Positions 26,388 to 26,457 of a DNA stretch of 31,023 nt are shown piece by piece. The notes beneath the pieces are model-generated. The model did no database searches. It was not told where the DNA came from and saw only the letters and a list, made by a program, of their open reading frames with translations. The translations under genes were made by a program, and so were the position numbers. The first letter of the stretch is position 1. Each line of letters starts with the position of its first letter. The stretch comes from a virus: IMG/VR virus record IMGVR_UViG_3300027832_000074, positions 1 to 31,023 of that record, one strand, 5' to 3'.

Positions 26388-26394
26388 TTTACTT

Positions 26395-26422
26395 ATTTAT
26401 TTATTTATTTATTTATTTATTT
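26395..26422 (-). repeat. (AAAT)7 leader repeat at the gp32-like start; candidate translational operator
   Basis: Seven perfect AAAT units in the mRNA sense, flanked on both sides by an AAGT variant, fill positions about -8 to -35 of the gp32-like start. T4 gp32 represses its own translation by binding cooperatively to an unstructured A/U-rich leader at its start codon. This tract is an unstructured A/U leader at the same place, so autogenous control is a reasoned inference. Confidence 0.9.
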
Positions 26423-26457
26423 ACTTTCATACATATTAATAAATTAATTAACATACT

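What the first reader, a model, noticed from the sequence alone, without database searches (positions are those of the whole stretch)
26388..26428. Seven AAAT repeats abut the gp32-like start codon: candidate autogenous translational operator
The mRNA leader is AAGT, seven perfect AAAT units, AAGT, AAA, ATG. In T4 and RB69, gp32 shuts off its own translation by binding an unstructured A/U-rich repeated leader cooperatively. This is the only tetranucleotide run of its kind I see in the window, and it sits before the gene that encodes the gp32-like protein. The repeat number could tune the set point of free protein. The sequence motif differs from T4, so it would be a convergent or diverged version of the same control.
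Basis: partly seen in the sequence, partly recalled or inferred. Interest (0 to 1): 0.75.

Follow-up and report, generated by a model that had tools for sequence, protein, structure and literature searches.

The report
UAAA-repeat leader of a phage SSB gene
Seven perfect AAAT repeats sit directly before the single-strand-DNA-binding protein gene of a T4-like phage of AT-rich bacteria; the repeat is real and recurs at this gene in three distant lineages, but similar A-rich leaders and repeats also precede other strongly expressed phage genes, so it most likely is an unstructured translation-start leader that grew by slippage, with T4-style self-repression possible but unproven.

Summary
It is far beyond chance, and the gene is a gp32-family SSB. 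A 98.9%-identical strain also has 7 units. Read in register the array is (UAAA)n, the same unit as in the T4 operator, so "the motif differs from T4" is wrong.

Comparison of about 90 related leaders cuts both ways.

For a gp32 link: extended UAAA/UAAG arrays recur at gp32 in three divergent lineages (41-59% protein identity). Unbiased gp32 leaders show a weak 4-nt periodicity that sheath leaders lack. The 92%-identical sister has a significant 5' hairpin before the array, which is T4-like topology.

Against a gp32-specific operator:
- That sister keeps only 5 imperfect units, at the same leader length.
- A-content and UAAA density match the same phages' tail-sheath leaders.
- (AAAT)5-7 also precedes another gene in two relatives, and crAss-like major-capsid genes.
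- The window leader has no C, so it cannot form the T4 pseudoknot.

Best reading: a strong-promoter, SD-free, unstructured A-rich initiation leader whose AAAGUAAAUAA seed expanded by slippage. gp32 autorepression is a live, non-exclusive rival.

The parts
26395..26422 (-). (AAAT)7 perfect tetranucleotide array = (UAAA)n in the mRNA
26388..26394 (-). AAGTAAA immediately before the ATG; A at -3 and -6
   Evidence: sequence
26423..26426 (-). AAGT, 5' edge of the array (conserved seed AAAGTAAATAA)
26388..26457 (-). 70-nt leader from the inferred -7 box to the ATG: 40 A, 24 T, 6 G, 0 C; last 53 nt fold to 0 kcal/mol
   Evidence: the transcription start is inferred, not mapped
26432..26455 (-). weak A/U hairpin at the 5' end of the leader (-4.3 kcal/mol, no better than shuffles; the equivalent in sister L001 is -8.8, z -4.4)
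26458..26465 (-). Bacteroidota-type -7 box TATGTTTG (consensus TATATTTG in relatives)
   Evidence: consensus TAHHTTTG in PMC6847099
26479..26487 (-). upstream promoter element TTGACTTTT, present in 72 of 76 gp32 leaders examined (window included)
25494..26387 (-). gp32-family SSB, 297 aa; Zn motif H69-X12-C82-X8-C91-X2-C94; C-terminal tip DDLPF
26592..26622 (-). terminator-like GGGTCC/GGGCCC hairpin plus T-rich tail of the upstream gene, separating it from the gp32 transcript
   Evidence: read by eye

Best explanation
The repeat is the central part of the 5' leader of a strongly transcribed, single-promoter gp32 (SSB) mRNA. The phage's host very probably belongs to the Bacteroidota, whose ribosomes do not use Shine-Dalgarno pairing, and strong starts there depend on an unstructured, A-rich stretch before the AUG. 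These phages' leaders carry a short A-rich seed (AAAGUAAAUAA). In a few lineages replication slippage expanded it into a UAAA/UAAG tandem array, and selection kept the leader's length, A-richness and lack of structure rather than the unit number. Shown: the array, the gene, the promoter-like elements, the predicted lack of structure, the equal composition of sheath leaders, arrays at other genes, and turnover of the array at near-constant length in the window clade. Inferred: host phylum, transcription start, high expression, slippage, and the initiation-enhancing role.
For: The promoter TTGACTTTT-N-TATATTTG precedes gp32 in most leaders (upstream element in 72 of 76) and occurs only 0-4 times per contig. 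No SD enrichment: 6 of 351 genes against 10.1 expected. Last 40 nt of gp32 leaders versus sheath leaders of the same phages: A 0.67 vs 0.67, GC 0.13 vs 0.13, UAAA 2.80 vs 3.25, AATAAC motif 84% vs 75%; other leaders A 0.44, UAAA 1.41, AATAAC 12%. (AAAT)n also precedes the g3 orthologue in L118 (7 units) and L064/L100 (6 units), the window-14283-like gene in L102/L114, and crAss major capsid genes. AAAT arrays precede ATGAG in 39 viral contigs against 5 for ATTT arrays. The 92%-identical sister has 5 imperfect units plus an A-run, leader 71 vs 70 nt. L209 and L210 (99.5% over 9.9 kb) differ by about one 13-nt repeat unit in the gp32 leader. A at -3, -6, -12, -13 and low structure promote initiation in Flavobacterium (PMC6847099).
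Against: Recurrence of arrays specifically at gp32 in three divergent lineages, and the period-4 excess in unbiased gp32 leaders (mean z 0.89; sheath -0.44; A-rich controls 0.50), suggest something more than generic A-richness. Position -12 is T, not A, in the window. The sister's significant 5' hairpin (z -4.4) is not needed for this model. Expression level and transcription start are unmeasured.
Confidence: 0.57

Rival explanations
1. Autogenous translational operator: excess gp32 coats the UAAA array cooperatively and blocks the start site, as in T4, without a pseudoknot; the array length gives the binding lattice. This is compatible with the leader also being an initiation enhancer.
For: True gp32 family with the Zn motif intact. 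The T4 operator uses UUAAA/UAAA repeats in an unstructured region next to the start (PMC535899; T4 leader read). UAAR arrays at gp32 in three lineages: window clade, L118 (about 90 nt of AAAT/AAGT) and L212 (6 units). TAAR runs of 2 or more units in 14 of 39 unbiased leaders against 7.8 expected. Sister L001 has a 5' hairpin then an unstructured array.
Against: Leader composition is not distinct from late structural genes. Equal arrays occur at non-SSB genes. Most gp32 relatives have no array. No pseudoknot; the window's hairpin is no better than shuffles. The T4-type relative RB49 shows operators are not universal (PMC535899, PMC3014915).
Confidence: 0.31
2. Hypermutable microsatellite that tunes or phase-varies gp32 expression by changing the unit number.
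For: Perfect 4-nt array within the leader; copy change in another gp32 leader between 99.5%-identical phages.
Against: Both available strains have exactly 7 units; the sister keeps the length despite different units; varying an essential SSB has no obvious benefit.
Confidence: 0.06
3. Target of a different RNA-binding regulator (RegA-like), since RB69 RegA selects AAUAAUAAUAA-type RNA and several leaders share AATAAC.
For: AATAAC-type motif shared by gp32, uvsX, sheath, capsid and sigma-like leaders; RegA SELEX result quoted in PMC3014915.
Against: I did not look for a RegA homologue outside the window; the window leader itself lacks AATAAC; the motif also fits simple A-rich initiation.
Confidence: 0.04

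Closest known systems
T4/RB69 gene 32 autogenous translational operator
   Same: gp32-family gene; unstructured A/U-rich region with UAAA units directly upstream of the AUG; in sister L001 also a 5' structured element before it
   Different: No pseudoknot and no Shine-Dalgarno; perfect 7-unit tetranucleotide array instead of UUAAA/UAAA; own strong Bacteroidota-type promoter; composition shared with non-SSB genes; repression untested
SD-independent A-rich (Kozak-like) translation initiation regions of Bacteroidota (Flavobacterium johnsoniae)
   Same: No SD, A at -3 and -6, very low structure, -7 box TANNTTTG
   Different: Longer leader (70 nt against a 33-nt average in F. johnsoniae) and a perfect tandem array; T at -12
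Repeat-bearing leaders of crAss-like phage major capsid genes
   Same: (AAAT)n array just upstream of an ATG in phages
   Different: Late virion gene, no relation to SSB; a gp32 operator cannot explain it

Membership tests
T4-type gp32 autogenous operator | Gene encodes a gp32-family SSB | tested here: met
   PF08804 E 8.9e-16; PHROG SSB; Zn motif
T4-type gp32 autogenous operator | UUAAA/UAAA repeats adjacent to the start codon | tested here: met
   8 UAAA in the last 40 nt; T4 has 4
T4-type gp32 autogenous operator | Less structured region of more than 40 nt covering the initiation region | tested here: met
   53 nt fold to 0 kcal/mol
T4-type gp32 autogenous operator | 5' RNA pseudoknot as nucleation site | tested here: not met
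   No C in the 70-nt leader; only an A/U hairpin, z -0.03; sister L001 has a hairpin with z -4.4 but no sign of a pseudoknot
T4-type gp32 autogenous operator | Element specific to the gp32 mRNA | tested here: inconclusive
   Composition equals sheath leaders and arrays occur at other genes, but a period-4 excess and recurrence at gp32 are seen
T4-type gp32 autogenous operator | gp32 represses its own translation | not testable with these tools
   Needs binding and reporter assays
Bacteroidota SD-independent initiation region | No Shine-Dalgarno | tested here: met
   6 of 351 genes with an SD-like core against 10.1 expected
Bacteroidota SD-independent initiation region | A at -3, -6, -12, -13 and low structure | tested here: met
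   Window: A at -3, -6 and -13 but T at -12 (sequence), so three of four positions; family: A-3 100%, A-6 63%, A-12 76%, A-13 94%
Bacteroidota SD-independent initiation region | -7 box TANNTTTG upstream | tested here: met
   TATGTTTG at 26458-26465; -7-like box in all 76 leaders
Bacteroidota SD-independent initiation region | Host is a member of the Bacteroidota | tested here: inconclusive
   Inferred from promoter type and SD absence only; no named Bacteroidota phage relative was found

The most novel reading that the evidence does not exclude
In T4-like phages of SD-independent bacteria, gp32 controls its own translation by cooperatively coating a pseudoknot-free UAAA/UAAG tandem array. The array is gained repeatedly by slippage, and its length sets the threshold of free gp32.
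Probability: 0.22. Interest if true: 0.62.

Novelty: new variant of a known kind. Interest (0 to 1): 0.42.

Why it matters
Whether gp32 autoregulation extends beyond the coliphages, and whether it needs a pseudoknot, is stated as open in the T4 literature (PMC535899, PMC3014915). This phage group offers natural leaders with 0 to about 20 UAAR units on orthologous gp32 genes, and composition-matched sheath leaders as built-in controls, so the question can be tested directly. It also documents an A-rich leader design shared by abundant proteins of phages that appear not to use SD starts.

Tried and rejected
Assembly artefact: rejected, because L121 has the same 7 units. Chance: rejected. Conserved pseudoknot or hairpin: none across the family. 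uORF peptide: upstream ATGs give MLINLLICMKVNK, which ends inside the array, but the differences from L001 and L121 appear all non-synonymous by eye, so no coding selection is visible. AATAAC as a gp32-specific element: rejected, because it is shared with uvsX, sheath, capsid and sigma-like leaders. Nucleotide search of named phages gave nothing; protein search found only cyanophage gp32 at 25-28% identity. Literature searches found no report of this leader.

Full report
OBSERVATION. On the minus strand the sequence before the gp32-like ORF reads GAAAGT-(AAAT)7-AAGT-AAA-ATG, with the array at 26395-26422 and the ATG at 26387. It is the longest perfect period-4 tract of the window (31 nt). Markov simulations of the window give a mean maximum near 12.6 and never more than 18; simulations with intergenic composition never exceed 21. 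TRF lists no other tetranucleotide array. The gene product is a gp32-family SSB (PF08804 E 8.9e-16; PHROG SSB) with the T4-like Zn motif H-X12-C-X8-C-X2-C. It lies upstream of a UvsX-like recombinase, an exonuclease and a DnaB-like helicase. A second contig, L121, 98.9% identical over 5.1 kb, also has exactly 7 units.

ANATOMY. Upstream lie TTGACTTTT (26479-26487) and TATGTTTG (26458-26465). The pair recurs as TTGACTTTT-N-TATATTTG in gp32 leaders of this family: the upstream element is in 72 of 76 and a -7-like box in all. It is rare elsewhere, with 0-4 copies per contig, one of them usually at gp32. The -7 box fits the Bacteroidota consensus TAHHTTTG except for one G (PMC6847099). Genes of these phages show no Shine-Dalgarno enrichment (6 of 351 against 10.1 expected). 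Host phylum and transcription start are therefore inferred, not shown. From the -7 box to the ATG the leader is 70 nt: 40 A, 24 T, 6 G and no C. Its last 53 nt fold to 0 kcal/mol.

THE UNIT. The T4 operator is a 5' pseudoknot followed by an unstructured region with UUAAA or UAAA repeats (PMC535899). What differs is the perfect tandem order and the missing pseudoknot, which a C-free leader cannot form with G-C pairs.

RELATIVES. Eighty related loci were fetched by protein similarity. The closest relatives with a complete gp32 (L001/L002, 91-92% protein identity) read AAGTAAATAAATAAGTAAGTAAATTAAAAAAAAAAGTAAA-ATG: five imperfect units plus an A-run, yet a leader of 71 nt against 70. Most others have no array but an A-rich leader with AATAAC. 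Pattern scans then found two more gp32 genes with arrays. L118 (58.8% identity) has a leader of about 90 nt made almost wholly of AAAT/AAGT units. L212 (42% identity, PF08804 E 9.5e-15) has six AAAT units; its 88%-identical relatives have interrupted arrays of similar total length. UAAR arrays thus recur at gp32 in three divergent lineages, downstream of an AAAGTAAATAA seed in the window and L212 clades. In a further, distant gp32 (L209/L210), two contigs 99.5% identical over 9.9 kb differ by about one 13-nt repeat unit in the leader.

CONTROLS. (a) Composition: over the last 40 nt, gp32 leaders match tail-sheath leaders of the same phages (A 0.67 vs 0.67; UAAA 2.80 vs 3.25; AATAAC 84% vs 75%). 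The four capsid leaders read are similar, while other leaders are not (A 0.44; UAAA 1.41; AATAAC 12%). (b) Order: in leaders collected without regard to repeats, period-4 autocorrelation beyond dinucleotide shuffles is mean z 0.89 for gp32, 0.50 for A-rich controls and -0.44 for sheath. TAAR runs of two or more units occur in 14 of 39 against 7.8 expected, and 0 of 9 for sheath (2.1 expected). The leaders share ancestry and the sheath set is small, so this is suggestive only. (c) Other genes: (AAAT)n also precedes the orthologue of window ORF 22723-23211 in L118 (7) and L064/L100 (6), a gene resembling window ORF 14283-14618 in L102/L114 (resemblance by eye), and crAss-like major capsid genes. 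AAAT arrays before ATGAG outnumber ATTT arrays 39 to 5 in the viral collection. (d) Structure: the window's 5' hairpin is no better than shuffles (z -0.03). In sister L001 it is significant (-8.8 kcal/mol, z -4.4), while L118 and L215 fold to 0. A T4-like layout of 5' structure plus unstructured array is thus visible in one small clade only.

WEIGHING. What persists is leader length, A-richness and lack of structure, and the same properties mark sheath and capsid leaders, which no gp32 operator explains. In Flavobacterium, upstream adenines and low structure raise initiation without SD pairing (PMC6847099). I therefore favour an SD-free strong initiation leader whose seed expanded by slippage (0.57). 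T4-like autorepression (0.31) stays open, because arrays recur at gp32, the unit is that of T4, and a coating protein needs sequence bias and length more than exact sequence. The two are not exclusive. RB49 shows that T4-type phages can lack a recognisable operator (PMC535899, PMC3014915).

LIMITS. Genes were called with a simple ORF finder. Promoters, transcription starts and expression are inferred. The pattern scans required an ATGAG start. Relatives are metagenomic contigs, and records near the window may be left out of the collections. No RNA-binding data exist for this protein family as far as the held library shows.

Noticed in passing
window 25494-25510 (gp32 C-terminus) and relatives: The gp32-family proteins end in an acidic DDLPF-type tip (one reads DELPF) in all 44 or so relatives checked. 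From memory this resembles the bacterial SSB tip (E. coli DDDIPF); T4 gp32 ends LLNDL. It may recruit host SSB-interacting proteins.
   Followed up: partly
window 20127-22658: DnaB-like helicase ORF interrupted in frame by an intein with a LAGLIDADG homing-endonuclease domain.
   Followed up: no
window 27060-27128: Exact 15-bp tandem repeat (4.6 copies) coding for MDEPK units in the protein upstream of gp32.
   Followed up: no
L126, L130, L131, L137 sigma-like genes: Leaders of a sigma-factor-like gene carry a conserved out-of-frame upstream ATG 13 nt before the start (ATGARACARYTTAATG-type), a possible translational coupling or attenuating uORF.
   Followed up: no
L139-L142, window 25411-25493 (uvsX leader): A terminator-like hairpin followed by a conserved TTGTTCTAAAATAAC stretch lies between gp32 and uvsX in several relatives.
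   Followed up: no
L086, L096, L101, L111, L214: (AAAT)5-6 arrays directly before major capsid genes of crAss-like phages.
   Followed up: partly
L209/L210 gp32 leaders: Copy-number difference of about one 13-nt unit between phages 99.5% identical over 9.9 kb.
   Followed up: partly
L085, L088, L093, L098, L099, L110: (AAAT)5 one base before the ATG of a glycine-rich MSDFSDFFPAAGGGGG protein, repeated in six contigs and not gp32.
   Followed up: no
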